46,521 nucleotides of DNA from a virus. The stretch spans positions 1-46,521 of the IMG/VR virus record IMGVR_UViG_3300023179_005629; one strand, 5' to 3'. Below the pieces are notes generated by a model that saw nothing but the letters and a program-made list of their open reading frames with translations, searched no databases and was not told the DNA's origin. Made by a program: the position numbers and the translations under genes. The stretch's first letter is position 1; the number at the start of each line of letters is the position of its first letter. Positions 19,646 to 37,141 of this stretch are shown one piece after another.

Positions 19646-20369
19646 ATTAGTTGAAGAAGCACCATACCATCCTGGTTATGAATGCGCAGTATTTGAAAGA
19701 CCCATGAGTGAAGTGATTCGAGAAAGATTAACGCAAAACAATTCTAGATTTTTCGCCAATGATAATATTTCAGCATGTATAAAGCATGAGCATGAAATAG
19801 ATGCACTTGTTGAAGAAGTAGCAGAGCAGTTTCAAGGAGTACTTCGTTCTTTAGTTATTGATACAAAGAACGATCATAACACTCAAGACACAGCTCGTCG
19901 TGTTGCTAAGATGTTTGTAAAAGAAACATTTAGGGGTCGTTATGCGAATCCGCCTAAAGTTACAGCATTTCCTAATGTGACTGAGTATGATGAATTGTAT
20001 GTAACAGGTCCAATTACTATTAGGAGCACATGTGCCCATCATTTTCAAAACATTGTTGGTAAAGCCTATATTGGCGTATTTCCGGGGAAGAATGTTATCG
20101 GCCTTAGTAAATTTAATCGTATCACGGATTGGATTGCTTCTCGTCCGCAGATTCAGGAAGAAATGACCGTACAGATTGCTGATGCTATTGAAAGTGAAAC
20201 GCAGGCCGATGGTGTTGCTGTACTAGTGCAGGCCGAGCATCATTGCATGACTCACAGAGGAGTTAAGGAACATGAGTCAGACATGACTACTTCTGTTATG
20301 AGAGGAGCATTTAGAAATGATCCTCATCTTAAACAAGAATTTTTTAGTATTATTCATAAAATGAAATGA
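19632..20369 (+). CDS. folE: GTP cyclohydrolase I FolE
   Basis: A 245-residue enzyme for the first step from GTP to 7,8-dihydroneopterin triphosphate, the entry to both folate and 7-deazaguanine synthesis. The C-terminal two thirds carry the family signature STCAHHFQNIVGKAYIGVFPGKNVIGLSKFNRI (zinc ligands C134 and H137 probable) and VQAEHHCMTHRGVK (third ligand C205). The usual CEHH is CAHH here. The N-terminal about 70 residues are longer than in many bacterial enzymes. Either ATG 19632 or ATG 19638 could start it; both follow AAAGG. With queE and queD nearby, the likely use is CDG supply for DNA modification rather than folate. Confidence 0.93.
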   Translation: MTMNKLVEEAPYHPGYECAVFERPMSEVIRERLTQNNSRFFANDNISACIKHEHEIDALVEEVAEQFQGVLRSLVIDTKNDHNTQDTARRVAKMFVKETFRGRYANPPKVTAFPNVTEYDELYVTGPITIRSTCAHHFQNIVGKAYIGVFPGKNVIGLSKFNRITDWIASRPQIQEEMTVQIADAIESETQADGVAVLVQAEHHCMTHRGVKEHESDMTTSVMRGAFRNDPHLKQEFFSIIHKMK

Positions 20370-21718
20370 AACTTTACGATAAAAGAATAGCATTTTGCAT
20401 TAGCGACCAGCATTTAGTCGCACACGGGGGAATTGGTCAATTTGCCAAAGGCTTTACTGAGATGGCAAAAAATCTCAGATGGAAGGTTGATATTATCATG
20501 GATAAGGCCCCAACCGGGGGTTTTAGTTCCATAGTAGAGGGGTTCGGCGCATCTTTAGTTTATCCATCAAATTCAAATTCTTATTCAGAGCATACTGGCA
20601 CGTTTGCATTTTCAGATTCAATAAATTTTGAAAAGATCATTAATTTTAGAAGAGCATTAATGATTGCGTTTTCTAAAAATTTTTATGATATGGTTATTTG
20701 CAATTCCATGGAATCTATGCCTGCGGCATTCGCATTAGATTTAGGTAGAAATATACCAGTCGTGTTTTATACTCATGAAGAGTCTATGGTATTTAGAGAT
20801 ACCAGAAAATTTAAAGGTGTATTCACTGAAAGTTGTAATGAATTTTTTAATAGACTAATGACAGTAGATCATGCCTTTGTTGGTACTCAATCCCCTCGTA
20901 ATGTAGATGAATTAAAATCGAATGGATGTAACCATGCTATTCTGTTGCCAATGCCTATGTCCGAACGAGAACTACTTGAACCATATAATGGGGAGAAGTC
21001 TGGAGTATTATACATTGGTAGATGGGAAGAACGTAAAAACCCTGAAGCATTTCTTAAGGTAATAAAAGAGACAGGCCTGCCTGCAAAAATTATTACTAAT
21101 AGTAATGGTAAGAAAAAATTTGAAGCAAGATTAGCTGAACTAGGTATTACTAATTTTGAAATGAAGGCGGGAATTGTAGGGAAAGAAAAGGTAGATTTTA
21201 TTCGATCCTCAAAGGTTCATTTCAACCCATCTCTCAGAGAAAATTATCCATTTACATTCTTTGAGTGTCTTGGGCATATGCCTTGCGTAGTATTAGATAA
21301 ATCTGAATGGGTAACCAATTTTAGTAAAGAATTGTATACTAGAGTTTCCATTGATAAAGCTGGAGAAGCAATTAAGGCACTATATAATTCAAATGCAGGT
21401 GGCGCTTTAGAATATGTAAAAGAACTTGACATTAATACTGCTGAAAAATGGGTAGACTTTTTAGATAATTACAAATCAAGTTCAATATCTAATTCTGATG
21501 CGGCGAAAATAAACGAATATACTACTGTAAAATACTTAGATTTTATTAAAGATTTAAATAGAAAAAATTTGGCTATAGAAGATATAAAAAGTGTATTGAC
21601 AAACAAGCATAAGTATAATATAATTTATACTGATGAGCATACTTATCTATCAAAAGAAAAGCATTTTGTTCCCCGAGAAGAAAACACTAAAGGAAGCTTA
21701 GAGGATTTATTTGCATAA
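20366..21718 (+). CDS. GT-B glycosyltransferase with clamp-like C-terminal tail
   Basis: A 450-residue GT-B enzyme. The N-terminal Rossmann half has HGGIGQFAKGFTEMAKNLRWKVDIIMD; the C-terminal nucleotide-sugar half has VLYIGRWEERKNPEAFLKVI, KVHFNPSLRENYPFTFFECLGHMPCVV (the ExxxxG-type donor motif of GT4-like enzymes). A poorly conserved linker (about 370-440) leads to the last eight residues GSLEDLFA. DpdA, encoded just downstream, ends SSLEDLFT. That tail resembles T4-group sliding-clamp-binding peptides, and T4 alpha-glucosyltransferase, a DNA glycosyltransferase, is known to bind the clamp. DNA glycosylation is therefore my preferred inference; surface glycan synthesis is the alternative. 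It overlaps folE by ATGA. Confidence 0.8.
   Translation: MKLYDKRIAFCISDQHLVAHGGIGQFAKGFTEMAKNLRWKVDIIMDKAPTGGFSSIVEGFGASLVYPSNSNSYSEHTGTFAFSDSINFEKIINFRRALMIAFSKNFYDMVICNSMESMPAAFALDLGRNIPVVFYTHEESMVFRDTRKFKGVFTESCNEFFNRLMTVDHAFVGTQSPRNVDELKSNGCNHAILLPMPMSERELLEPYNGEKSGVLYIGRWEERKNPEAFLKVIKETGLPAKIITNSNGKKKFEARLAELGITNFEMKAGIVGKEKVDFIRSSKVHFNPSLRENYPFTFFECLGHMPCVVLDKSEWVTNFSKELYTRVSIDKAGEAIKALYNSNAGGALEYVKELDINTAEKWVDFLDNYKSSSISNSDAAKINEYTTVKYLDFIKDLNRKNLAIEDIKSVLTNKHKYNIIYTDEHTYLSKEKHFVPREENTKGSLEDLFA
21698..21712 (+). repeat. 15-bp direct repeat, copy 1 (codes for LEDLF tail)
   Basis: TTAGAGGATTTATTT at the end of the glycosyltransferase gene. It is identical to 23969-23983 at the end of dpdA and in the same reading frame. 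The next bases are also nearly the same (GCATAA here, ACATGA there). It encodes LEDLF directly before the final residue and stop. Confidence 0.9.
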
Positions 21719-22564
21719 TCTTGATTTGTGGGCGTTGGATATTTTAAGTTTATGCTCTGCGGAAAAAGAACCAACCCCCGCTTTAAAACCAATAGAAAGA
21801 TAATAATCCAATTCGTCAGTTCTAATCATCTTTTTAGTTTTAAGAATGGGGCAATGTACCCACTTAGTATTAGCATTTTTGTTTTTCCAAATAGAAAGAT
21901 CCAATGATTTATACTCATCTGAATCTTTTTTTACCAATATTTTTTCGTTAGTGATAATATTAAAAAGTAAAATTTTACCTTTATTAGCTTTACTAAGTTT
22001 TTCTTTGATAAGAGGATTATGAGAATTATTATAAAATCCGGTTTTATTTTTTATAGTTTCTCGATATTTTACCATAAAAGATTCACTTTTCATATGATGG
22101 TCGACACCATATTTTTTTAAAGATGTTTGTTTACGTTTTTCTTGATATTGTGTATTCCTAAATTTTTTAGTATTTTTAATTTTTTCTTGTATCCCAGGAA
22201 TTTTATTTGGATTATCTACACCATACTTTTTAAGCATAAATTGTTTATATTCCTCAGTACCATATACAAATAAATGATTATTGTGTCCATTAAACCAATT
22301 ATCTGAATTAGCACAATCATTTATTTCTAGAAAAGATTTCTCATATTCATATGGATGTAGACCATCGCAATTAGAATCAGTTCTAAGAATATCGAAAGAC
22401 TTTATTCCTTCAGTTTTTATGATATTTTTAATTTTATTACTATGAGTTTTGTATGTTACTAGTAGATCATCTGGATGACAATTCTTACCCCATCTTGAAC
22501 CAGCATACATTTTGCCGGTGGAAATGTGGCGAATAATATAGAAATATGGAATACGTTGGTTCAT
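21707..22564 (-). CDS. GIY-YIG homing endonuclease with NUMOD-like repeats
   Basis: The only clear minus-strand gene. I chose the ATG at 22564 (MNQRIPYFYIIRH), since the longer open frame to 22708 would run through two hairpins and into dpdA. The 285-residue product has a GIY-YIG type nuclease at the N-terminus: YFYII, then KMYAGSRWGK (Tyr, Gly, Arg), YEKSFLE (metal-binding Glu) and WFNGHNN. The C-terminal half repeats KKYGVDNPNKIPGIQEKIKNTKK and KKYGVDHHMKSESFMVKYRETIKNK, like the NUMOD DNA-binding modules of phage homing enzymes. It sits between two tail-sharing genes and overlaps the glycosyltransferase end by 12 bases. It should be a selfish mobile gene. Confidence 0.85.
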   Translation of the reverse strand: MNQRIPYFYIIRHISTGKMYAGSRWGKNCHPDDLLVTYKTHSNKIKNIIKTEGIKSFDILRTDSNCDGLHPYEYEKSFLEINDCANSDNWFNGHNNHLFVYGTEEYKQFMLKKYGVDNPNKIPGIQEKIKNTKKFRNTQYQEKRKQTSLKKYGVDHHMKSESFMVKYRETIKNKTGFYNNSHNPLIKEKLSKANKGKILLFNIITNEKILVKKDSDEYKSLDLSIWKNKNANTKWVHCPILKTKKMIRTDELDYYLSIGFKAGVGSFSAEHKLKISNAHKSRLCK

Positions 22565-22570
22565 TTTTTC

Positions 22571-22599
22571 TTGACCTATATATAAAAAGATGTTAAACT
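22571..22599 (+). promoter_or_regulatory. Possible sigma70 promoter for dpdA
   Basis: TTGACC (22571-22576), a 17-base spacer and TAAACT (22594-22599) lie just upstream of the homing gene start on the opposite strand. Transcription would begin near 22606, giving an approximately 88-base leader for dpdA. Both hexamers deviate from consensus, so this is tentative. Confidence 0.45.
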
Positions 22600-22612
22600 T
22601 AGACTGGGACAG

Positions 22613-22654
22613 CAAGAACTTGACCTCTTGTTGGGAATTGCTCGAACAATTCCC
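22613..22654 (+). other. Tandem hairpins in the dpdA leader
   Basis: Two adjacent inverted repeats: CAAGA/TCTTG (22613-22617 with 22626-22630) and the stronger GGGAATTG/CAATTCCC (22633-22640 with 22647-22654, six-base loop CTCGAA). No T-run follows, so a simple terminator is unlikely. They could fold in the 5' leader of dpdA or, on the other strand, of the homing gene. I do not recognise a known riboswitch. Confidence 0.55.
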
Positions 22655-22668
22655 TAACCAGCCATTAT

Positions 22669-22676
22669 TATTTATA
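22669..22676 (-). promoter_or_regulatory. T4-type late promoter on minus strand for homing endonuclease
   Basis: The plus strand reads TATTTATA, so the minus strand carries an exact TATAAATA about 105 bases upstream of the endonuclease ATG. It would drive late expression of the homing gene and lies only 18 bases upstream of the dpdA start on the other strand. Confidence 0.65.
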
Positions 22677-22693
22677 AAAAAACGGTTTTTGTA

Positions 22694-23989
22694 ATGCAAA
22701 AGAAACAAAAAATCTTCGAGTACACAATTTCTGGCCCGGCATATCTTCGCCTAGGGGCGGAACAATGCAACGATCCAGAGACTCTTGATATGATTAATAG
22801 TCTTATTCTTAAGACTTGCCATAATCAAAATAATCATACGTTCTCTCTTTTATATAATGGGTTTACTGAAAAGAATTTTGGACCTAAACTTCAAAAATAT
22901 AGGCCAGCAGTTAAACAAATTCATGCTGACTCTGGTGGACTACAAATAATCACTAGGGGATTACAAAATACACCTGAGATTAGAGATAAGGTTTACACCA
23001 ATCAAGGAACATACGCGGATATAGGTATGGCATTTGATGAAATTCCTGTTAAGGCAACACGGGATGGAAAATCCTCTAAAATTGATACGAAGCGTAGATA
23101 TTTTGATAGAGAAAATTTTGATGCGTATGCTACACAGACTGGTAAGAATGTCAGAGCACAGATTGAGAAATTTATTGAACTAAAATCTATTTGCAGGCCA
23201 TTCGTTATTATGCATGGTGCTTCCCATCAAACATATCAACAATGGGCGGAAACGATTCTTCGAGAAGTATCTGAACCATTACATGATAGAATAGGTGGAG
23301 TAGCCATGGGGTCAGCTGCTCTAGGTATGGGACAATTAGAAGATGTGAAACGAGCATTTTATGTAACATTAATGCCGTTTAGCAGACCTTTTCATCTTCA
23401 CGTTCTAGGAGTAGGTGCTCTTAGGCGCATGCTACCTTATATTCTTTTTAGTCAAACGGGGTTGTATGATGAGATTGATTTATCTTACGATTCTACTACT
23501 CATTCTATGTCTCTTGATAATGGTTTATTCTACTTTTCTCACTATAAAAAGTCACCAGGATCTGCTTATGGAGGCACATCAGTTAAGATGGGAAGGGAAT
23601 ACTCTAACATCTATAGAACAGTTACAGAAGAAATCAATTCAGTATGTGGGACAGAGTATACGCCCGAGGAATATCACAAGTTAATGAATAAACAAGTTAC
23701 CGCATACTTGGAAGAAGGCGGCAAATTTATTGATATTATGCGTGCTAGATTATCATTTATTCTTACCAATGTTCATAACTTTACTAAAGATGTATCAGAA
23801 TTAACTCAATCTAAAGATCAATTTTTGAAATTTGCAAGAGATAAGGATTGTGAAAATCAATATGCTTCATTATTTGACATAAAGAATTTAGATGATTTTC
23901 TACATTGGGAAAAAGAAGTCGGAAAATTTATGGATTCAGAATCGGTAGTTGATAAACCACCTTCATCATTAGAGGATTTATTTACATGA
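22694..23989 (+). CDS. dpdA: DpdA-like 7-deazaguanine DNA transglycosylase
   Basis: A 431-residue member of the tRNA-guanine transglycosylase superfamily. Landmarks: HADSGGLQ (D79, base-binding loop as in TGT DSGG), IGMAFDEIP (D115-116 region), IGGVAMGSAALGMG (TGT GG-loop), FHLHVLGVGALRRMLPYI and YDEIDLSYDSTTHS (D262 or D266 as nucleophile). The zinc-binding CxCxxC region of tRNA enzymes is absent, and with FolE, QueD and QueE nearby the DNA-modifying DpdA role is favoured. It should swap guanine in phage DNA for a 7-deazaguanine and so block restriction. The C-terminus SSLEDLFT matches the upstream glycosyltransferase tail. There is no good ribosome site; the ATG is preceded by ACGGTTTTTGTA. 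Confidence 0.87.
   Translation: MQKKQKIFEYTISGPAYLRLGAEQCNDPETLDMINSLILKTCHNQNNHTFSLLYNGFTEKNFGPKLQKYRPAVKQIHADSGGLQIITRGLQNTPEIRDKVYTNQGTYADIGMAFDEIPVKATRDGKSSKIDTKRRYFDRENFDAYATQTGKNVRAQIEKFIELKSICRPFVIMHGASHQTYQQWAETILREVSEPLHDRIGGVAMGSAALGMGQLEDVKRAFYVTLMPFSRPFHLHVLGVGALRRMLPYILFSQTGLYDEIDLSYDSTTHSMSLDNGLFYFSHYKKSPGSAYGGTSVKMGREYSNIYRTVTEEINSVCGTEYTPEEYHKLMNKQVTAYLEEGGKFIDIMRARLSFILTNVHNFTKDVSELTQSKDQFLKFARDKDCENQYASLFDIKNLDDFLHWEKEVGKFMDSESVVDKPPSSLEDLFT
23969..23983 (+). repeat. 15-bp direct repeat, copy 2 (codes for LEDLF tail)
   Basis: TTAGAGGATTTATTT at the 3' end of dpdA, identical to 21698-21712 at the end of the glycosyltransferase gene. Both copies are in frame and lie six bases before the end of the stop codon region, so the repeat preserves the same terminal peptide. 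Confidence 0.9.
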
Positions 23990-24366
23990 TTATTAAACAA
24001 GACGTTAGACCTCGTACAGAAACATTTATTAAGATTCGTGCAGAGTTTGAAGGCTATCATAGATATCCTATTGCGAGCCAAATTGATCCTCGTATTGCAT
24101 TTCTTGAAAATGAACATAGGCATATGTTTAAAGTTGAGGTAAAAATTTCAGTATCTCACCTTGACAGGGAATTAGAATTCTTTTTAGTTAAATGGGCATT
24201 GCAAGATTTTATTAAAGGCGGCAATATGAATCACAAATCTTGTGAGATGATTGCCACAGATATTCTAGAGCAACATCTTATTCCTAAATATGGTCAAAGG
24301 TACTATGAGATTGTTGTATCAGAAGATGGTGAGTCTGATGGCATTGTTGAATATTTTCCAGGATAA
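23986..24366 (+). CDS. QueD-like T-fold protein next to dpdA
   Basis: A 126-residue protein overlapping dpdA by ATGA. Parts recall the 6-pyruvoyl-tetrahydropterin synthase / QueD fold: an N-terminal strand with FEGYHRYPIA, HRHMFKVEVKISV in place of the HGHxYxVxV motif, SCEMIATDILEQHL in place of the SxExLAxxI motif, and the terminal strand YYEIVVSEDGESDGIVEY. The usual catalytic Cys and the Asp-His pair are not obvious, so it may be non-catalytic or bind a pterin or deazaguanine. Its coupling to dpdA suggests a partner or substrate-handling protein. It could also be an unrelated small protein. Confidence 0.6.
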   Translation: MIIKQDVRPRTETFIKIRAEFEGYHRYPIASQIDPRIAFLENEHRHMFKVEVKISVSHLDRELEFFLVKWALQDFIKGGNMNHKSCEMIATDILEQHLIPKYGQRYYEIVVSEDGESDGIVEYFPG

Positions 24367-24368
24367 TT

Positions 24369-25541
24369 ATGCGTAAATTATGGTATTGCGGTTTAGAGCC
24401 GTATGAGGGCAGATACACTTTACAGCTTCAGCAATGGAGTGAGGCTGTATTTAAGCGACGTGGTATTAACTACGAGGTAATTCATGGTGAACTATTAGAT
24501 ACATCCAAGTCTATCGTAACAGGGCAGGTGTTAGATGCGCATGGTCGTAGTTATTATTCTTTGACTCAGATGGCTAAACTTGTGGCAAAGATGAAGGCCG
24601 GTGAAGTAACTTGGGAAGATACTATTTTCTTTGAGGATATGTTTACTCCAGGTATGGAAGCTTTACCCTATATTATGGATCAAACAACTACAGAGTTTAG
24701 GCCTCAAATTTGGGTTAGATGCTTAGCTCAGACAATTGATCCTGATGACTTTTTGCATGTCTGGGACATGCAAGATTGGATGCGAAACTATGAACATATG
24801 ATTAATCATTTTGTAACAGGGGTTCTAGCATCTAATGAAGAAATGGTAGCACATATGAAGATTGCAGGTTGGAATGTTCCGATCTACAATATTTCTGGTC
24901 TCGCTTTTGGTAAAGAAGAAGTACAATCTCGAGTACCTAATAGAAAAAATTTCTTTGATCGTAAACGACGTGTTTGCTTTGCTGCGAGATTCGATCAGGA
25001 AAAACAACCCGGATTTTTTATGGATTTAGTCGAGAGAGTAACAAATTATACTAATACTGAATTCTGTGTATTATCTGGTGGACCATTACGTAGTAATGAT
25101 GATGGGTATTTAGAACGTGCTAGAAATTTAGAAGCTCAAGGTAAATTAAAAATATATGAGAATCTAAAGAAAAACGAGTATTATGAAATACTAGCAGATA
25201 GTAGAATTTTATTTAATTGTGCTTTACAAGATTGGGTATCAAATACAGCCTCAGAAGCAGATGCACTTGGCACAAATTGTTTATATCCTGCTTATAGAAG
25301 TTTTCCAGAATCTTTTGCCAATGATTCGGAATGTTTATATATTCCTTGGTCAATTGAAGATGCAGAAAGAAAACTAATTCATTTACTTAATAATCTAAGA
25401 ACAAATCTAGGTAAAATGTCAGATTGGACTAATGGCACCATTGATCGTTGTATAGATATTATGATAGATAATCAGACAGGTGAAAAATGGTATAGAGGCA
25501 ATAATAGGTATAGAAATTATGTCCCACAATCTAAATTCTAA
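24369..25541 (+). CDS. Second GT-B glycosyltransferase in modification island
   Basis: A 390-residue protein starting three bases after the previous gene. It opens MRKLWYCGLEPYEGRYTLQLQQWSE. The second half is GT-B-like: VCFAARFDQEKQPGFFMDLVERV (phosphate/nucleotide loop region), LKIYENLKKNEYYEILADSRILFNCALQDWVSNTASEADALGTNCLYPAY, the last part being the donor-binding E-x-x-A-x-G segment of GT4-like enzymes. It is not closely similar to the transferase at 20366 and lacks the SLEDLF tail. The galE gene overlaps its 3' end by 23 bases, suggesting UDP-galactose or UDP-glucose as donor. Acceptor unknown; modified DNA base or glycan are both possible. Confidence 0.75.
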   Translation: MRKLWYCGLEPYEGRYTLQLQQWSEAVFKRRGINYEVIHGELLDTSKSIVTGQVLDAHGRSYYSLTQMAKLVAKMKAGEVTWEDTIFFEDMFTPGMEALPYIMDQTTTEFRPQIWVRCLAQTIDPDDFLHVWDMQDWMRNYEHMINHFVTGVLASNEEMVAHMKIAGWNVPIYNISGLAFGKEEVQSRVPNRKNFFDRKRRVCFAARFDQEKQPGFFMDLVERVTNYTNTEFCVLSGGPLRSNDDGYLERARNLEAQGKLKIYENLKKNEYYEILADSRILFNCALQDWVSNTASEADALGTNCLYPAYRSFPESFANDSECLYIPWSIEDAERKLIHLLNNLRTNLGKMSDWTNGTIDRCIDIMIDNQTGEKWYRGNNRYRNYVPQSKF

Positions 25542-26511
25542 AAATGTAGTTGTTACTGGTGCTGCTGGTTATATTGGAGGCATCACTTGCATAGAGTTGA
25601 AAAGAAAAGGTTATAATGTTTTTGGAGTAGATAAGAGATATACCTCGCATTTAGATAAATATTATGATGAGTTTTATCAAGGTGATTTCATAGATTACAA
25701 GTCTTTTCTTTTATTAAAAAAAGCAAATCCTACTACTATTATTCATTGTGCCGGATCAAGTTTAGTTGATCCAAGTTTTATTTCGCCTGGAACATATTTT
25801 GATAATAATATAGCAAAGACAAACAGATTACTTGATTTTATAAAAGATGAATTGATAGCAACTAAATTTATTTTTAGTAGTAGTGCTGCAGTTTATGGTA
25901 ATTGGAGTAGAGAGCCATATAGAGAATATAATGATACCTTTCCCGTTTCTCCATATGGAGAAACTAAACTGATGGTAGAAAAAATTCTTAGTTGGTATCA
26001 TAAAATTTTTGGTCTAAAGTATGTCTCATTACGATATTTCAATGCTTGTGGTGCAGATTTTGAATCTATTCACGGACAAGAACCAGGAGCATCGCATATT
26101 TTTGCTAAATTATTTGAATGCGCTTTAAATGATACTGCTTTTACCTTATATGGTTCTAACTATCACACCAAAGATCAAACATGTATTAGAGATTATCTAC
26201 ATGTATCGGATATAGCCGAAGCTCATATACAATGTATTGAAAATGATACTGTGGGTATATATAATTTAGGCACTTTAAAAGGTACATCAAATTTAGAATG
26301 TTTAGAACAAGTAGAAATTTTTTTAAATAAAAATATAGTTGTTAATGTTGCCCCTAAAAGAGAAGGCGATCCAGCAATATTAATTGCTGATCCCACTAAA
26401 TTTCAGATAGCTACTGGTTGGAAAGCACAAAGATCCATGGCTATGATTGTAAAAAATTTGCACCAATGGTATCAATCCGATATCTTTAAGAAATTAAATA
26501 AGCGGTCTTAA
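25519..26511 (+). CDS. galE: UDP-glucose 4-epimerase GalE-like
   Basis: A 330-residue short-chain dehydrogenase. I use ATG 25519 (MSHNLNSKNVVVTGAAGYIGG), because the upstream alternative at 25480 lies deep in the preceding gene. Motifs: NAD-binding GAAGYIGG (about 14-21), IIHCAGSSLVDPS, SSSAAVYGNWSREP, catalytic PYGETK (YxxxK), RYFNACGADFESIHGQ, CIRDYLHVSDIAEAH and YNLGTLKGTSNLE. These match GalE, which interconverts UDP-glucose and UDP-galactose. It overlaps the upstream glycosyltransferase, so donor supply for that enzyme is a reasonable inference. Related epimerases act on UDP-GlcNAc or uronic acids; the substrate cannot be fixed by eye. Confidence 0.85.
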   Translation: MSHNLNSKNVVVTGAAGYIGGITCIELKRKGYNVFGVDKRYTSHLDKYYDEFYQGDFIDYKSFLLLKKANPTTIIHCAGSSLVDPSFISPGTYFDNNIAKTNRLLDFIKDELIATKFIFSSSAAVYGNWSREPYREYNDTFPVSPYGETKLMVEKILSWYHKIFGLKYVSLRYFNACGADFESIHGQEPGASHIFAKLFECALNDTAFTLYGSNYHTKDQTCIRDYLHVSDIAEAHIQCIENDTVGIYNLGTLKGTSNLECLEQVEIFLNKNIVVNVAPKREGDPAILIADPTKFQIATGWKAQRSMAMIVKNLHQWYQSDIFKKLNKRS

Positions 26512-26570
26512 GACGCTCATCCCGCTTTATAAATTCTGCGTGTCATCAAACTTACTCCGAGAGGCAAGAG

Positions 26571-27077
26571 ATGGCTTATATCAATTTACCACATCCATAC
26601 AAATACGTTAGTACAAAAGAATACCATGATGCATTTCCCTGCGCATATAGACAATGGAGAGCAGATAGTCATTGCAATATGATTCATGGTTATAGCTTTA
26701 GTATGAAGTTTTACTTCGGAACTGATGACCTAGATGTTCGTAACTGGGCAGCAGACTATGGCGGACTTAAAGAACTAAAGAAAATTCTTGAAGATCAGTT
26801 TGACCATACTCTACTAGTTGCAGAGGACGATCCTGAACTAGAAACATTTAAACTATTACAAGAAAAGAAAATGGCTAAGCTAACTATTTTGCCTAGATTA
26901 GGATGTGAAGGGTTAGCTGATATGCTCTATAGATATGTCAACGGAGTTTATATTCCAGATATGTGGGGTCCAGGTGAAGCAGAAAGATTATGGTGTTTTA
27001 GAGTAGAAGTAAGGGAAACACAATCTAATATGGCATATAGAGAAGGACACAGACATTGGAATGAAATACTTATCTAA
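26571..27077 (+). CDS. queD: 6-carboxy-tetrahydropterin synthase QueD (variant)
   Basis: A 168-residue PTPS-family enzyme, expected to convert dihydroneopterin triphosphate to 6-carboxy-tetrahydropterin, the QueE substrate. Recognisable parts: FPCAYRQWRADSHCNMIHGYSF (H34, C35, H39), FDHTLLVAEDDPELETF (D78-H79) and GCEGLADML (E113). The common family has H...C...HGH; here the first His position appears as Tyr and HGH is HGY, with an extra His beside the Cys. A subfamily with SHC-x3-HGY exists in bacteria (from memory), so zinc binding may be rearranged rather than lost. It starts 59 bases after galE with AGAGGCAAGAG upstream. Confidence 0.85.
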   Translation: MAYINLPHPYKYVSTKEYHDAFPCAYRQWRADSHCNMIHGYSFSMKFYFGTDDLDVRNWAADYGGLKELKKILEDQFDHTLLVAEDDPELETFKLLQEKKMAKLTILPRLGCEGLADMLYRYVNGVYIPDMWGPGEAERLWCFRVEVRETQSNMAYREGHRHWNEILI

Positions 27078-27079
27078 TA

Positions 27080-27673
27080 ATGATTAAATTCTATAAACAA
27101 ATCATATCTAAACAAAACGCAGAGGAAATTTATCATTCCTTTATGCCGTTAGTTATGAATAATTTTAATTTATATTCTGAAGCAGATACGCCGGCTATAC
27201 GTGTAGATGGGACGGGAAGAGGAGCAGGAACTTTAAATTTTCCCACAACATTGAATGAAATCGAAAATATAAAAAATAAAGTAGAAGCAGATTTTGGTGA
27301 TCAATATAAATTTACCCATTCTTATTTAAGATTATATCCCAATGACAGTGTACTGCACCCCCACATAGATAGAAAAGGTTTAGATTTGACTCTATCGGTA
27401 AATATATATTCTTCTGATAATACCTATTGGCCACTAGTAATTAGTAATAAATGTATGCCCCCTGAGGAAGAAACCGAAGCTTCTGCTGTAGGGGATGAAA
27501 AGGAAAGTTATATTTTATTGAAAGATTATTTTAAAGATTCTATAGAGTACAATTTTAATATTGGAGATGGTGCTTGTTGTACAAGAGAACATCCACATTG
27601 GAGACCATTTTATAATATGTCTTTCGAGGGAGATCATTATGTTCAGTGTTTTTATCATTGGAAACTTAAATGA
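27080..27673 (+). CDS. 2-oxoglutarate/Fe(II) oxygenase-like protein
   Basis: A 197-residue protein two bases after queD. The double-stranded beta-helix metal motif is visible as HPHIDRKG (H95-x-D97) and the distal EHPHWRPFY (H173, R175 as probable 2-oxoglutarate contact), preceded by FTHSYLRLYPNDSVL. Such oxygenases are frequent in aquatic T4-like phages, and their substrates are mostly unknown. The location between queD and a flavoprotein, inside the modification island, makes oxidation of a DNA base or deazaguanine side group an option. Hydroxylation of a protein or small molecule is equally possible. It overlaps the next gene by ATGA. Confidence 0.7.
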   Translation: MIKFYKQIISKQNAEEIYHSFMPLVMNNFNLYSEADTPAIRVDGTGRGAGTLNFPTTLNEIENIKNKVEADFGDQYKFTHSYLRLYPNDSVLHPHIDRKGLDLTLSVNIYSSDNTYWPLVISNKCMPPEEETEASAVGDEKESYILLKDYFKDSIEYNFNIGDGACCTREHPHWRPFYNMSFEGDHYVQCFYHWKLK

Positions 27674-28824
27674 AAATTGCAATAGTTGGTGCAGGTATAG
27701 CAGGTATTACTGCTGCTTATTTCTTAAGTAAAAAAGGTTACAATATTACCGTATTTGAAAAAGAAAGATATGCTGCAATGAAATGTTCATATGCTAACGG
27801 GGGACAAATATCTGTATCTAACTCTGAGGTTTGGAATACGTGGCCTAATATTAAAAAGGCTATCAAATGGGTTGGTAAAAAAGATGCTCCCCTTTTACTT
27901 AGACCAAATTTGAATTGGAAAAAAGCATTTTGGCTTATTAAATTCTTGGCTAGTACTGTCAAGAATGACCATGAATTACGAACCATTGAAACAATTAAAA
28001 TGGGCGTTGCTTCAAGGAGATTATATAATACAATAAGAATGCAGGAAAAATTAGATTTTGATTATAAAAAATGTGGTATAATGCATATCTATAAAAATCC
28101 TGAATATTTTAGACATGCAGTTGAGATGAAGGACATCTATGAATCTTATGGGTGTTCATGGGTTATTAAGACTTCTAATGAATGTTTAGAAATTGAGCCA
28201 AGATTATATCATTTACACAAGTCTGGGTTAGTTGGTGGCATTTGGACTGAGGAAGATTCTGTGGGTGATATACACAAATTTTGCACTCAATTAGAAGCAG
28301 TCCTAGCTAAGAAGTACAAAGTTGATTTTAGGTATAATACAGAAATTAAAAAAATAGATGCACTTTATGATTTTGACAAAATTGTTATTGCGAATGGATC
28401 TGATACTTGTAGTCTAGCTATGGATCACGATGTTTGTGTTTACCCTGTTAAGGGATATAGTATAACCATTGAGGGTGCTAGAGGTTCCCCATCTGCATCT
28501 ATATTAGACGATGAAGCTAAAATAGTTTGTTCTAGGCTGGGTGATAGACTAAGAGTAGCTGGTACTGCTGAAATCGGTGACCACAATTTAGATATTACTA
28601 GATCAAGAATTACTCCTCTACTTAAATGGGTCAAAGATAATTTTCCGCAAGTAAACACTGCAGAATATTCTCAATGGGCTTGTCTACGTCCTATGTCGCA
28701 CGATATGATGCCAATTGTTAGACAATCCTCGATCAATCCAAAAATCTATTATCATACTGGGCATGGGCATCTCGGTTGGACTCTGGCTCCTGCGACAGCA
28801 AAACAATTATCTGAACTAATATGA
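27670..28824 (+). CDS. dadA: FAD-dependent D-amino acid dehydrogenase-like oxidoreductase
   Basis: A 384-residue flavoprotein of the DAO superfamily. The N-terminus has the dinucleotide fold GAGIAG (about 7-12) with the FAD-ribose Glu in VFEKE, then SYANGGQISVSNSEVWNTWPNIKKAIKWVGKKDAPLLLRP, very like DadA (ANAGQIS, APLAVR). The C-terminus has WACLRPMSHDMMPIVRQS and YHTGHGHLGWTLAPATAKQLSELI, again DadA-like. DadA oxidises D-amino acids to 2-oxo acids and ammonia. Length is a little short of bacterial DadA (about 430). In a phage this may be an auxiliary metabolic gene, or the fold may be used for nucleotide or amino-sugar modification, given its neighbours. Confidence 0.82.
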   Translation: MKIAIVGAGIAGITAAYFLSKKGYNITVFEKERYAAMKCSYANGGQISVSNSEVWNTWPNIKKAIKWVGKKDAPLLLRPNLNWKKAFWLIKFLASTVKNDHELRTIETIKMGVASRRLYNTIRMQEKLDFDYKKCGIMHIYKNPEYFRHAVEMKDIYESYGCSWVIKTSNECLEIEPRLYHLHKSGLVGGIWTEEDSVGDIHKFCTQLEAVLAKKYKVDFRYNTEIKKIDALYDFDKIVIANGSDTCSLAMDHDVCVYPVKGYSITIEGARGSPSASILDDEAKIVCSRLGDRLRVAGTAEIGDHNLDITRSRITPLLKWVKDNFPQVNTAEYSQWACLRPMSHDMMPIVRQSSINPKIYYHTGHGHLGWTLAPATAKQLSELI

Positions 28825-28873
28825 ATTGTCCTGTTCTCAAATAACTTAAGATTATATCTTGAAAGGAGGTCGT

Positions 28874-29921
28874 ATGAAGATTTGTCTTTTAGGCGACACA
28901 CATTTTCGGTGTACGTAATGATTCAAAGTCTTTTCATAAATACTATGAAAAATTTTATAACTATTTGTTTAATTATTTAGAAGAACATGATATAGATCAG
29001 ATTATACAACTAGGTGATTTATTTGACAGACGAAAATATATTAATTTTTTAACACTTTCTGAATCTAAAAGATATTTCTTCGATATTATTAAAAATAAGA
29101 ATATAAAATTAACTGCATTGCTCGGCAATCATGATATCTTTTGGAAAGAAAGTGTTAGTGTAAATTCTCCTAATCTTTTACTTGATAGTTATACCACACT
29201 CAATATTGTAAATTTCCCAAAAACTATAGTTATTAATGGTATTGCTATTGATATTATACCATGGATATGTAAAGAAAATGAGGAAGAAATCTTTAAGTTT
29301 ATAGAGGGTTCCTCATCAGATATTTGTATGGGACATTTTGAATTGGCAGGATTCGATATGATGAAAGGTATTCCGAGTCATGAAGGAAAAGACGCAACAT
29401 TTTTGAGTAAATACAAACAAGTTTTTAGTGGGCATTATCATACCGCATCTTCTAAAGGAAATATTCATTATTTAGGAACACCATATGAATTAACGTGGAT
29501 GGATTATGGAGACACTAAAGGATTTTATATTTTGGATTGCGAATCCTTAGAAATAGAATTTATTAAAAACGAATTAACAATGTTCGAGAAAATATATTAT
29601 AATGATACTGAAGATTTAAAACTGCAGTATGATAATCTAGAAGATAAGTTTATAAAGTTAATTGTAGTAAATAAAACTGATTATAAACAATTTGATGGAG
29701 TCATTGAGGAAATTTATAAAAGAAATCCGATTGAATTAAAAATTATTGAGGATCTTTCTGAATTTGAAAATTCAGCAGTTGATGAAAATTTAAATTTAGA
29801 AGACACAATGACATTATTGTCTGAATATGTAGATGGTCTAGAAACAGATGCGGATAAAATAAGATTAAAAACTTTGCTTAGAGAGTTGTATGTGGAAGCA
29901 CATGATTACGAGGAAACATGA
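28874..29921 (+). CDS. 47: Recombination nuclease subunit gp47 with apparent +1 frameshift
   Basis: Mre11-type nuclease of the gp46/gp47 complex, which processes DNA ends. A strong ribosome site (AAAGGAGGT) precedes ATG 28874, which encodes MKICLLGDTHF and then runs into a stop at 28916. In the +1 frame the protein continues GVRNDSKSFHKYYEKFYNYLFNYLEEH, giving 348 residues (T4 gp47 is 339). The switch lies at CAT TTT CGG T (28901-28910), where one T of four is extra. Metallophosphatase motifs span both frames: GDTHFG (first frame plus shift), then GDLFDRR, GNHD, GHFE and GHYH. A TTG at 28965 would lose the first metal motif. The cause is a sequencing or assembly error, a mutation, or programmed +1 slippage. 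Confidence 0.85.
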
Positions 29922-31630
29922 TTCATTTCAAGATAATACGATGGCGAAATTTTTTATCAACTGGAAATCATTTTACTGAGGTGCAATTAAATAATAATTC
30001 CACCACACTGATTATAGGTGAGAATGGTGCAGGTAAAAGCACAATTCTAGATGCGATATGTTTTGGTTTATTCGGTAAAGCATTTAGAAACATTAATAAA
30101 CCCCAATTAATAAATTCTATTAATCAAAAAAATTGTATTGTTGAAATTGAATTTAAAATAGGTAAAAAGGAATATAAAATAATAAGGGGAATGAAACCTG
30201 GTATTTTTGAGATCTACCTAGAAAATAATTTAATAAATCAAGATGCAGCAGTAAAAGATTATCAAAATTACTTTGAAGATAAAATTTTAAAATTAAATTA
30301 TAAATCTTTTACTCAGATAGTCATTTTAGGTTCCGCTTCTTTTACTCCCTTTATGCAATTGGCGCAAGGAACTCGACGCGAAGTGATTGAGGATATTCTA
30401 GATATACAAATTTTCAGTGTTATGAACAATATTCTTAAACATAGAATATTAGAAACAAAAGAAAAAATTAGAGAAATAGAAACTAGAATAGAACTAGATA
30501 AACAAAAGGTAAAACTGCAGCAGGATTACATCAAGCAACTTGAAGAAGATAAAAAGAAAAGACATGACGATATTCAACTTACAATCAGCGAAACTTATGA
30601 AGGCATCAAACTCCTTGAAGAAAAGATTGAATGCCTCTCAGGAGAACTCGGAACTTTATCGAATTCGATTGAGGATGATAACGAGATCTCTAAGCGAAGA
30701 ACAGAAATGGTTACTCTTTATAAATCATTGCAAATTAGAATTGAAAAAATCACAGATGAGATCGTGTTTTACGAAGAGCACGATACGTGCCCGACTTGTA
30801 CTCAGATTTTATCTAGTGAACTTAAGGAGACTGCAATCGGTAAACATGCACATAAGAAAGAAGAAATCTGTACTGCAGTTGATACGCTTAACAACAAAAT
30901 CCAAGAGCTTGAAACTAGAGCTAATGAAATCTTTGCCGCTAAACAAAAAATACTTGAAATACAAACCGAAATAACAAAATATAATACTGAGATAATTGGA
31001 GGTCAAAATTATATACGAAAACTTAAAAAGGAAATGGATGATTTCTCAAACAATCAAACTAGTACAGAAGAAGCCAAGATACAATTAAAAACTATAGCAA
31101 AACAAGTAGTAGAGGCAGCAGAAAACAGAGGTAAACTTAAAGAAAATTCTTTTTACTTGGATGCTGCCTCTTCTTTACTCAAAGATACCGGCATCAAAAC
31201 TAAAATTATTAAGCAGTACTTGCCTGTTATTAATAAATTGGTAAACAAATATTTGTCAGCAATGGACTTTTTCGTATCGTTTGAATTGGATGAAGCATTT
31301 AATGAAACTATCAAATCAAGGCATCGTGATGATTTTAGTTATGCATCTTTTAGTGAAGGTGAAAAGCAAAGAATAGATTTAGCTTTATTATTTACGTGGC
31401 GCACTATAGCTAAAATGAAAAATAGTGCATCTACTAATTTATTATTATTGGATGAAGTATTTGATAGTAGTCTAGATTCAAATGGTACAGATTTTGTTAT
31501 GAATCTTTTAAATACATTGGGGGATGATGTCAATGTATTTGTTATATCACATAAGGGAGATCAGCTATTGGATAAGTTTGACAATGTAATAAAATTTGAA
31601 AAGCATCAAAATTTTTCTAGGATAATTTAA
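29918..31630 (+). CDS. 46: Recombination ATPase subunit gp46 (Rad50/SbcC-like)
   Basis: A 570-residue SMC-type ATPase that partners gp47 in end resection and recombination-dependent replication. Walker A is GENGAGKS (about 34-41). A long coiled coil follows (about 165-430), interrupted by the zinc-hook CPTC (291-294). The ABC signature is SFSEGEKQR (about 477-485) and Walker B LLLLDE (508-513), followed by a D-loop-like SSLD. The final switch His lies in VISHKGD. It overlaps gp47 by ATGA, consistent with coupled synthesis of the complex. All motifs are intact, in contrast to the interrupted gp47 frame. Confidence 0.95.
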   Translation: MIHFKIIRWRNFLSTGNHFTEVQLNNNSTTLIIGENGAGKSTILDAICFGLFGKAFRNINKPQLINSINQKNCIVEIEFKIGKKEYKIIRGMKPGIFEIYLENNLINQDAAVKDYQNYFEDKILKLNYKSFTQIVILGSASFTPFMQLAQGTRREVIEDILDIQIFSVMNNILKHRILETKEKIREIETRIELDKQKVKLQQDYIKQLEEDKKKRHDDIQLTISETYEGIKLLEEKIECLSGELGTLSNSIEDDNEISKRRTEMVTLYKSLQIRIEKITDEIVFYEEHDTCPTCTQILSSELKETAIGKHAHKKEEICTAVDTLNNKIQELETRANEIFAAKQKILEIQTEITKYNTEIIGGQNYIRKLKKEMDDFSNNQTSTEEAKIQLKTIAKQVVEAAENRGKLKENSFYLDAASSLLKDTGIKTKIIKQYLPVINKLVNKYLSAMDFFVSFELDEAFNETIKSRHRDDFSYASFSEGEKQRIDLALLFTWRTIAKMKNSASTNLLLLDEVFDSSLDSNGTDFVMNLLNTLGDDVNVFVISHKGDQLLDKFDNVIKFEKHQNFSRII

Positions 31631-36133: not shown

Positions 36134-37141
36134 ATGAAAAAAGCTCTTATCACCGGCATAACTGGGCAAGATGGGTCATATCTAGCAGAGCTGCTTTTAC
36201 AGAAGGGTTACGAAGTACATGGTGTTATTCGTAGATCTTCTAGTATCAATACGAGTCGTATAGATCATATCTACTACAATAAAAATCTCAAGTTACACTA
36301 TGGCGATGTTACTGATTCTTTGTCTTTAATGACGATTCTAAAACAATATCCTGTTCAAGAAATTTATAATTTAGCCGCACAAAGCCATGTAAAGGTTTCT
36401 TTTGAAACCCCCGAATATACTGGTCATGTAGATGCGTTAGGTACTCTTAAGATTTTGGAATCGATAAGACTTCTTGGTTTGGAAAAAGATGTTAAAATTT
36501 ATCAAGCATCTACTTCTGAATTATATGGATTGGTTCAAGAAATACCTCAGAAGGAAACCACTCCTTTTTATCCTCGTTCCCCATATGGTGTTGCTAAACT
36601 ATATGCCTATTGGATAGTTAAAAATTATAGAGAAGCTTATGATATGTTTGCTTGTTCTGGTATTTTGTTTAATCATGAATCACCGAGAAGGGGACACACA
36701 TTTGTTACTCAAAAAATTGTTCAAGGATTAAAGGCAATTCAGCAGGGCAAAACAAATCAACCTATTTTAATGGGAAATTTGAATGCTAAAAGAGATTGGG
36801 GGCATGCTAAAGATTATGTGAATGCTATGTGGCTCATGCTTCAAAGAGATAAACCAGAAGATTTTGTTATTGCTACTGGTAAGATGTATTCAGTTAGATT
36901 TTTTGCAGAATTGGCAGCTTCCTATTTTAACATGAACATTGAATGGGAAGGCGTGGGCCTAAATGAAGTAGGGATAGATACGATTTCAGGTAGAAAAGTT
37001 ATTGCCGTAGATAAAAAATATTTTAGACCTGCAGAAGTAGAGCAATTACTCGGTGACTCATCTAAAGCTAGAGAAGTTTTAGGATGGAAACCAGATCATG
37101 ATATCTTCTCATTAGCTGAGGATATGTGCCTTAATGGATAA
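36134..37141 (+). CDS. gmd: GDP-mannose 4,6-dehydratase
   Basis: A 335-residue short-chain dehydrogenase that turns GDP-D-mannose into GDP-4-keto-6-deoxy-D-mannose, the branch point to fucose, colitose and rhamnose. Motifs: NADP-binding GITGQDG (8-14) and [19 protein letters not shown] (T127, E129, Y131), catalytic YGVAK (Y151, K155), [10 protein letters not shown] and the late [29 protein letters not shown]. These are diagnostic for Gmd. The protein is about 40 residues shorter than the E. coli enzyme. It overlaps the following fcl gene by eight bases, so the first two pathway steps are coupled. Confidence 0.95.

What the first reader, a model, noticed from the sequence alone, without database searches (positions are those of the whole stretch)
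28874..28970. gp47 is split by a +1 frameshift at a UUU CGG slip-like site inside its first catalytic motif
Seen: a strong ribosome site and ATG 28874 start MKICLLGDTHF, then the frame stops at 28916; the +1 frame continues with a perfect gp47 protein. The shift falls at CAT TTT CGG T: P-site UUU can re-pair with UUC after a +1 move while CGG, expected to be an uncommon codon in this AT-rich genome, is in the A site. The influenza PA-X frameshift uses a similar UUU CGU. All other gp47 motifs, and gp46, are intact. Inference: either a one-base error or mutation in a T4 run, or programmed +1 slippage that controls nuclease level.
Basis: partly seen in the sequence, partly recalled or inferred. 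Interest (0 to 1): 0.72.

Follow-up and report, generated by a model that had tools for sequence, protein, structure and literature searches.

The report
Homing-endonuclease scar forces gp47 frameshift
A DNA-repair gene of T4-like phages is split by one extra base that recurs at exactly the same place in dozens of diverged phages, usually right behind a selfish homing-endonuclease gene, so these phages almost certainly rely on a +1 ribosomal frameshift to make an important enzyme that the selfish gene had invaded.

Summary
gp47 starts at 28874, frame 0 stops at 28916, and the +1 frame continues as a complete gp47. The same extra base at the same codon (D-x-H-F | G) occurs in 57 IMG/VR contigs (56 loci analysed including the window; 38 clusters at 90% amino-acid identity). 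Controls with a one-base deletion there, or a one-base insertion two codons later, gave 0 hits. Codons before the slip are constrained in frame 0 and codons after it in +1; dN/dS is 0.05-0.17.

The shift is tied to homing endonucleases. An HNH (MobE-like) or, in a separate family, GIY-YIG (Seg-like) endonuclease gene or remnant lies directly upstream in 41/56 frameshifted loci and 0/187 in-frame loci. Paired genomes show the cassette inserted inside the 5' end of gp47, supplying a replacement 5' end with a strong ribosome site plus the shift. The window is a late stage: the endonuclease is deleted except its last 6 codons and stop (28824-28844).

Most likely mechanism: P-site tRNA-Phe slips UUU to UUC while CGG, the window's rarest codon, sits in the A site. 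I infer that the extra base protects the rebuilt target from its own endonuclease, as proposed for T4 MobA/gene 60. No frameshift assay exists.

The parts
27670..28824 (+). DAO-family FAD oxidoreductase gene, brought next to the scar; its stop abuts the endonuclease remnant
   Evidence: PF01266 E=7e-55; junction seen by comparison with L006 and L009
28824..28844 (+). Remnant of the HNH homing endonuclease 3' end (N-C-P-V-L-K-stop; L006 has K-N-G-P-V-P-K-stop)
   Evidence: Direct comparison with L006 and L009
28845..28873 (+). Cassette-derived leader with strong SD AAAGGAGGT (28862-28870), identical in three divergent phages
   Evidence: anti-SD energy -12.2 vs median -4.2 kcal/mol in in-frame relatives
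28874..28918 (+). Replacement 5' end of gp47, frame 0: MKICLLGDTHF(RCT) then TAA; carries motif I residues D8 and H10
   Evidence: frame-0 coding constraint upstream of the slip
28901..28909 (+). +1 shift site CAT TTT CGG (P-site UUU to UUC, A-site CGG)
   Evidence: Same site in 56 analysed frameshifted loci; codon statistics
28908..29921 (+). gp47 body in the +1 frame (SbcD/Mre11-like phosphoesterase)
   Evidence: phrog_100 E=1.6e-106; dN/dS 0.11-0.16 against L006 and L009
29918..31630 (+). gp46 (SbcC-like ATPase), intact partner subunit
   Evidence: phrog_77 E=2e-173

Best explanation
gp47 of this phage is made by +1 programmed ribosomal frameshifting at CAU-UUU-CGG. Peptidyl-tRNA-Phe moves from UUU to UUC while the rare CGG waits in the A site, joining MKICLLGDTHF (frame 0) to GVRND... 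(+1 frame). The extra base came with a mobile cassette: a free-standing homing endonuclease (HNH MobE-like here; GIY-YIG Seg-like in other phages) that inserts inside the first codons of gp47. The cassette supplies a replacement 5' end with a strong SD, a start codon, about 11 codons and the +1 base. Shown by sequence: recurrence of the shift, endonuclease linkage, replaced 5' ends, purifying selection in both frames, strong SD, enrichment of UUU-C/CGG. Inferred: that ribosomes really shift, and that the +1 base exists because it breaks the endonuclease target in the rebuilt gene (self-immunity), with strong initiation offsetting imperfect shifting. In the window the endonuclease has since been deleted and only the scar remains.
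For: 57 IMG/VR contigs carry the identical one-base insertion; all 46 newly found contigs are gp47. Controls: 0 deletions, 0 insertions two codons away. Cultured phages: all 1,625 matching records have one place covering at least 80% of the in-frame N-terminus, and the 60 sampled rows are single pieces spanning the site. Endonuclease within 1.5 kb upstream in 41/56 frameshifted vs 0/187 in-frame loci, Fisher p=3e-34; restricted to the DTHF motif, 10/17 vs 0/187, p=7e-13. Endonuclease domains: GIY-YIG PF01541 E=5e-14 and HNH PF01844/phrog_655. The gp47 ATG overlaps the endonuclease stop by 4 nt in many loci. Related pairs show insertion plus replaced 5' end: L104 vs L091 (96% nt), L161 vs L090, L010 vs L009. 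Shift base is C in 30/38 clusters vs 28/190 TTC in in-frame genes, p=1.5e-14. SD -12.2 vs -4.2 kcal/mol, p=2e-18. dN/dS 0.05-0.17. Frame-0 constraint in codons 2-7: synonymous fraction 0.42 vs 0.10 and 0.05 in the other frames. Frameshift scattered on the gp47 tree, at least 8 changes forced. No second gp47 in 9 records up to 111 kb.
Against: No ribosome, peptide or reporter data. No downstream RNA structure beyond that of in-frame genes. 8/38 clusters have UUU-UGG, where the A-site codon is not especially rare. The endonucleases' cleavage sites are unknown, so self-immunity is inference. All records searched for a second gp47 are incomplete, so one cannot be fully excluded. 15/56 loci show no recognisable endonuclease. 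Pre-insertion remnants upstream of complete endonucleases are individually weak by alignment (p 0.01-0.7). The in-frame comparison set is almost all DTHFG, whereas 32/56 frameshifted loci are DQHF.
Confidence: 0.8

Rival explanations
1. Sequencing or assembly error in a T run.
For: The run has four T; the window and three look-alikes include contigs of one metagenome.
Against: Same extra base in contigs from dozens of samples; no deletions at the same run; window and L001 agree.
Confidence: 0.01
2. Inactivating mutation: gp47 is a pseudogene in these phages.
For: Frame 0 stops after 14 codons.
Against: dN/dS 0.05-0.17, including a pair with and without endonuclease (L227/L239, 0.055); frame-0 codons before the slip stay constrained; ORFs remain full length.
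Confidence: 0.03
3. gp47 is translated from an internal start in the +1 frame, giving a nuclease-dead or altered protein.
For: Non-ATG starts exist (TTG at 28965).
Against: It would lose motif I residues D8 and H10, whose codons are kept in frame 0 together with unconstrained neighbours; the strong SD serves the frame-0 ATG; two stops precede the site in the +1 frame of the window.
Confidence: 0.05
4. The shift is a regulatory brake on gp47 in its own right; homing endonucleases merely settle at this allele.
For: 15/56 loci lack a recognisable endonuclease; two unrelated endonuclease families sit at the same site.
Against: 0/187 in-frame loci have such an endonuclease; endonuclease-free loci keep the strong cassette-like SD (median -12.1); window and L009 keep endonuclease remnants; L091/L104 and L090/L161 show shift and insertion together.
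Confidence: 0.1
5. Decoding by a +1 suppressor tRNA or by transcriptional slippage rather than P-site slippage.
For: Not excluded by sequence; hosts unknown.
Against: No tRNA gene in the window; run of only 3-4 U; preference for UUU-C/CGG fits P-site re-pairing.
Confidence: 0.05

Closest known systems
T4 MobA endonuclease and the gene 60 50-nt translational bypass
   Same: A homing endonuclease inserted in an essential T4 gene; a non-standard decoding event restores the product; the odd sequence is proposed to protect against cleavage (PMC5009743, PMC2988022).
   Different: Here the decoding event is a one-base +1 shift at UUU-C/UGG, not a 50-nt hop; the target is gp47; the cassette carries a replacement 5' end and SD; both HNH and GIY-YIG endonucleases are involved; it recurs in dozens of phages.
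Free-standing mob/seg homing endonucleases of T4-like phages (e.g. MobE)
   Same: HNH protein with about 35% identity to MobE, phrog_655; co-conversion of flanking DNA; compact overlap with the neighbouring gene.
   Different: Described free-standing endonucleases lie between genes or split a gene (Aeh1 nrdA); none found in the held literature rebuilds the target gene's 5' end with a frameshift.
Influenza PA-X UUU_CGU and bacterial prfB +1 frameshifting
   Same: P-site codon able to re-pair after +1, slow A-site codon.
   Different: Here the shift yields the full-length product and is linked to a mobile element; no prfB-like upstream SD stimulator seen at the shift.
Savior indel with compensatory frameshifting (herpesvirus TK)
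   Same: An indel is kept because it helps escape something, and frameshifting supplies product (PMC5009743).
   Different: The thing escaped would be a homing nuclease, inferred only.

Membership tests
T4 gp47 / SbcD-Mre11 nuclease subunit | Full-length family match and adjacent gp46 | tested here: met
   phrog_100 E=1.6e-106 from the slip onward; gp46 29918-31630 phrog_77
T4 gp47 / SbcD-Mre11 nuclease subunit | Metal-binding motif I D-x-H in one reading frame with the body | tested here: not met
   D8 and H10 are in frame 0, the body in +1; in frame in at least 187 relatives. Met at the protein level if the shift occurs
+1 programmed ribosomal frameshifting | Shift-prone P-site codon that re-pairs after +1 | tested here: met
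   UUU to UUC/UUU in 56/56 loci; even with TTN allowed in the pattern, only TTT was seen
+1 programmed ribosomal frameshifting | Slow or rare A-site codon | tested here: met
   CGG rarest in the window (6/12182), second rarest in frameshifted gp47s; 30/38 clusters; the UGG variant in 8/38 is weaker
+1 programmed ribosomal frameshifting | Conserved site with coding constraint in frame 0 before and +1 after | tested here: met
+1 programmed ribosomal frameshifting | Stimulatory mRNA element (common, not universal) | tested here: not met
   Downstream folding z -0.66 vs -0.68 in in-frame genes; authentic +1 sites such as PA-X also lack one (PMC5009743), so not disqualifying
+1 programmed ribosomal frameshifting | Trans-frame product detected | not testable with these tools
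   Needs reporter or mass spectrometry
Free-standing homing endonuclease cassette | Endonuclease ORF (HNH or GIY-YIG) at the locus | tested here: not met
   Window itself has only a 6-codon remnant plus stop; complete ORFs in L006, L092, L094, L233, L240, L244, L254
Free-standing homing endonuclease cassette | Homing activity and cleavage of the empty allele | not testable with these tools
   Only occupied/empty genome pairs are available
T4 gene 60-type bypass | About 50-nt untranslated gap with take-off/landing codons and hairpin | tested here: not met
   One extra base only; no special structure
Group I intron or intein | Splicing element between exons | tested here: not met
   No Rfam family in 27600-30000; the interruption is one base

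The most novel reading that the evidence does not exclude
Homing endonucleases of two unrelated families (HNH and GIY-YIG) have converged on, or exchanged, a portable module: a replacement 5' end of gp47 with a built-in +1 frameshift that makes the rebuilt gene immune to cleavage while ribosomes read through the change. It would be a splice-less way for a selfish gene to live inside an important gene.
Probability: 0.55. Interest if true: 0.9.

Novelty: new variant of a known kind. Interest (0 to 1): 0.82.

Why it matters
Mobile elements inside important genes normally need RNA or protein splicing. T4 gene 60 has been the lone phage case known to me where translation itself repairs the damage next to a homing endonuclease. 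Here is a second solution, more widespread and with a minimal one-base change. It gives dozens of natural +1 frameshift sites for study, including occupied/empty pairs and post-endonuclease scars. It also warns annotators that frameshifted gp47 genes in environmental phages are probably functional.

Tried and rejected
Error or private mutation: rejected by recurrence and by control patterns. Intron or intein: no Rfam hit, one-base interruption. Downstream stimulatory structure: none. Phage tRNA for CGG: no tRNA in the window. Second gp47 copy: none in 9 records, all incomplete. Cultured-phage examples: none found. Genome collection: first pattern 0 hits, broader pattern one hit that is a chance match, not gp47. 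L086/L087 endonucleases lie in a tail-gene region and are unrelated to gp47. Literature searches found no report of this arrangement.

Full report
Observation. The window is part of a T4-like phage: head-tail adaptor, tail sheath, major head protein, helicase, gp46. At 28874 an ATG behind AAAGGAGGT opens MKICLLGDTHFRCT and stops at 28916-28918. The +1 frame continues FGVRNDSK... to 29921 and is a complete gp47 body. The junction is CAT TTT CGG T at 28901-28910. CGG is the rarest sense codon of the window, 6 of 12,182.

Not an error. A contig of the same phage (L001, 4 SNPs in 7 kb) has the same site. Two much diverged phages, L006 and L009 (gp47 71% and 65% identical in amino acids), carry the same block TAACTTAAGATTATATCTTGAAAGGAGGTCGTATGAAGATTTGTCTTTTAGGCGACAC(A/G)CATTTTCGGTGT. 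A degenerate pattern for one extra base after the His codon found 11 contigs. A broader one found 57, and all 46 new ones are gp47 with frame 0 ending just after D-x-H-F and the +1 frame running on as gp47. The window plus non-redundant contigs gives 56 analysed loci in 38 clusters. In the genome collection the broad pattern had one chance match that is not gp47. In cultured phages, all 1,625 matching records hold the in-frame N-terminus in a place covering at least 80% of the query, and the 60 rows sampled evenly down the ranking are single uninterrupted pieces spanning the site.

Surroundings. L006 has a complete HNH endonuclease ORF right upstream of the block. L009 has only its 3' part, and the window only its last codons (28824-28844), fused to the end of a DAO-family gene. 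This HNH protein is MobE-like (about 35% identity; phrog_655). Across all loci, an endonuclease ORF or remnant lies within 1.5 kb upstream on the same strand in 41 of 56 frameshifted loci (34 HNH, 7 GIY-YIG) and in 0 of 187 in-frame loci (p=3e-34). Limited to loci with the same DTHF motif it is 10/17 versus 0/187 (p=7e-13). GIY-YIG (PF01541, E down to 5e-14, with an I-HmuI NUMOD-like tail) and HNH (PF01844) domains are confirmed. In many loci the endonuclease stop overlaps the gp47 ATG by 4 nt, so the gp47 SD lies in the last endonuclease codons.

Insertion inside gp47. L104 (in frame) and L091 (frameshifted) are 96% identical over 1.9 kb. L091 keeps the old start ATGAAAAT, then has an insert, then a new start and a new 5' end, with 8 differences in the aligned 36 bases although the body has dN/dS 0.017. 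In L090, compared with L161, the old start MKIAVISD survives upstream, followed by a GIY-YIG-type tail remnant and then the new start MRIAIISDTHF. L009 compared with L010 keeps ATGAATAAAATC and then enters endonuclease sequence. Upstream of complete endonucleases, decayed copies of the old 5' end are visible, clearest in L240 (KIVFFTHFGARND) but weak statistically one by one. So the cassette sits within the first codons of gp47 and supplies a replacement 5' end.

Function of the split gene. Bodies of frameshifted genes evolve at dN/dS 0.05-0.17 between each other, like in-frame genes (0.04-0.23), including L227/L239 where one has lost the endonuclease. Upstream of the slip, codons 2-7 (not constrained by the search pattern) are conserved in frame 0: synonymous fraction 0.42 against 0.10 and 0.05 in the other frames. 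Both halves are therefore translated and selected, which is the signature of a frameshift product. The SD is far stronger than in in-frame relatives (-12.2 versus -4.2 kcal/mol, p=2e-18), also in loci without endonuclease (-12.1). No second gp47 was found in nine records.

Shift mechanism. With all four bases allowed before the pyrimidine, only TTT occurs. The shift base is C in 30 of 38 clusters, against 28 TTC to 162 TTT in in-frame genes (p=1.5e-14) and 283 TTC to 563 TTT in the same genes' own bodies (p=3e-8). Selection thus favours UUU-CGG: after +1 the P-site tRNA-Phe pairs with UUC, and the A-site codon is rare. In 8 clusters it is UUU-UGG. No downstream RNA structure stands out and no Rfam family matches. 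The mechanism is inferred from the sequence, not measured.

Why the extra base. Inference: a cassette that rebuilds the conserved D-x-H-F-G target at its own edge must avoid cutting itself. One inserted base in the middle of the target, tolerated through a shift-prone codon, would do this. The T4 gene 60 bypass beside MobA has been given the same explanation (PMC5009743), and PMC2988022 describes MobE and MobA insertions that split nrdA (phage Aeh1) and gene 60. Cleavage specificity was not testable here. The frameshift appears at scattered places on the gp47 tree (at least 8 forced changes; 12 in a faster, larger tree). This fits repeated transfer, or repeated gain and loss, rather than one ancestral event, though long branches make exact counts unsure.

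Limits. IMG/VR contigs are fragments and no reads or proteins were seen. The wide pattern fixes Phe TTT and V/A, so other variants would be missed. In-frame DQHF relatives were not sampled. The library holds only open papers, so an earlier description elsewhere is possible.

Noticed in passing
window 27670-28824: DAO-family (D-amino-acid dehydrogenase-like) gene in a T4-like phage, directly fused to the endonuclease scar.
   Followed up: partly
L240 3694-4395 (-), L254 2391-3098 (-), L236 2416-3042: GIY-YIG homing endonucleases occupy the same gp47 site as the HNH ones, with the same frameshift.
   Followed up: yes
L006, L092, L094, L233, L244, within about 90 nt before the HNH ORF: TATAAATA, the T4 late-promoter consensus (from my own knowledge), lies upstream of the HNH ORFs; it might drive endonuclease and gp47 late, or derive from the decayed old gp47 5' end.
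   Followed up: no
L216, L233, L241 upstream of gp47: A nucleotidyltransferase-like gene (my reading of the translation, not searched) lies upstream of gp47 in several frameshifted phages.
   Followed up: no
L214-L259 DQHF loci: Most frameshifted gp47s have Gln in motif I (DQHF) whereas the in-frame ones sampled have Thr (DTHF); may be a lineage or sampling effect or part of target avoidance.
   Followed up: no
window 20366-27077 and 36134-37141: Glycosyltransferases, nucleotide-sugar epimerase/dehydratase genes and a QueD-like gene in the phage.
   Followed up: partly
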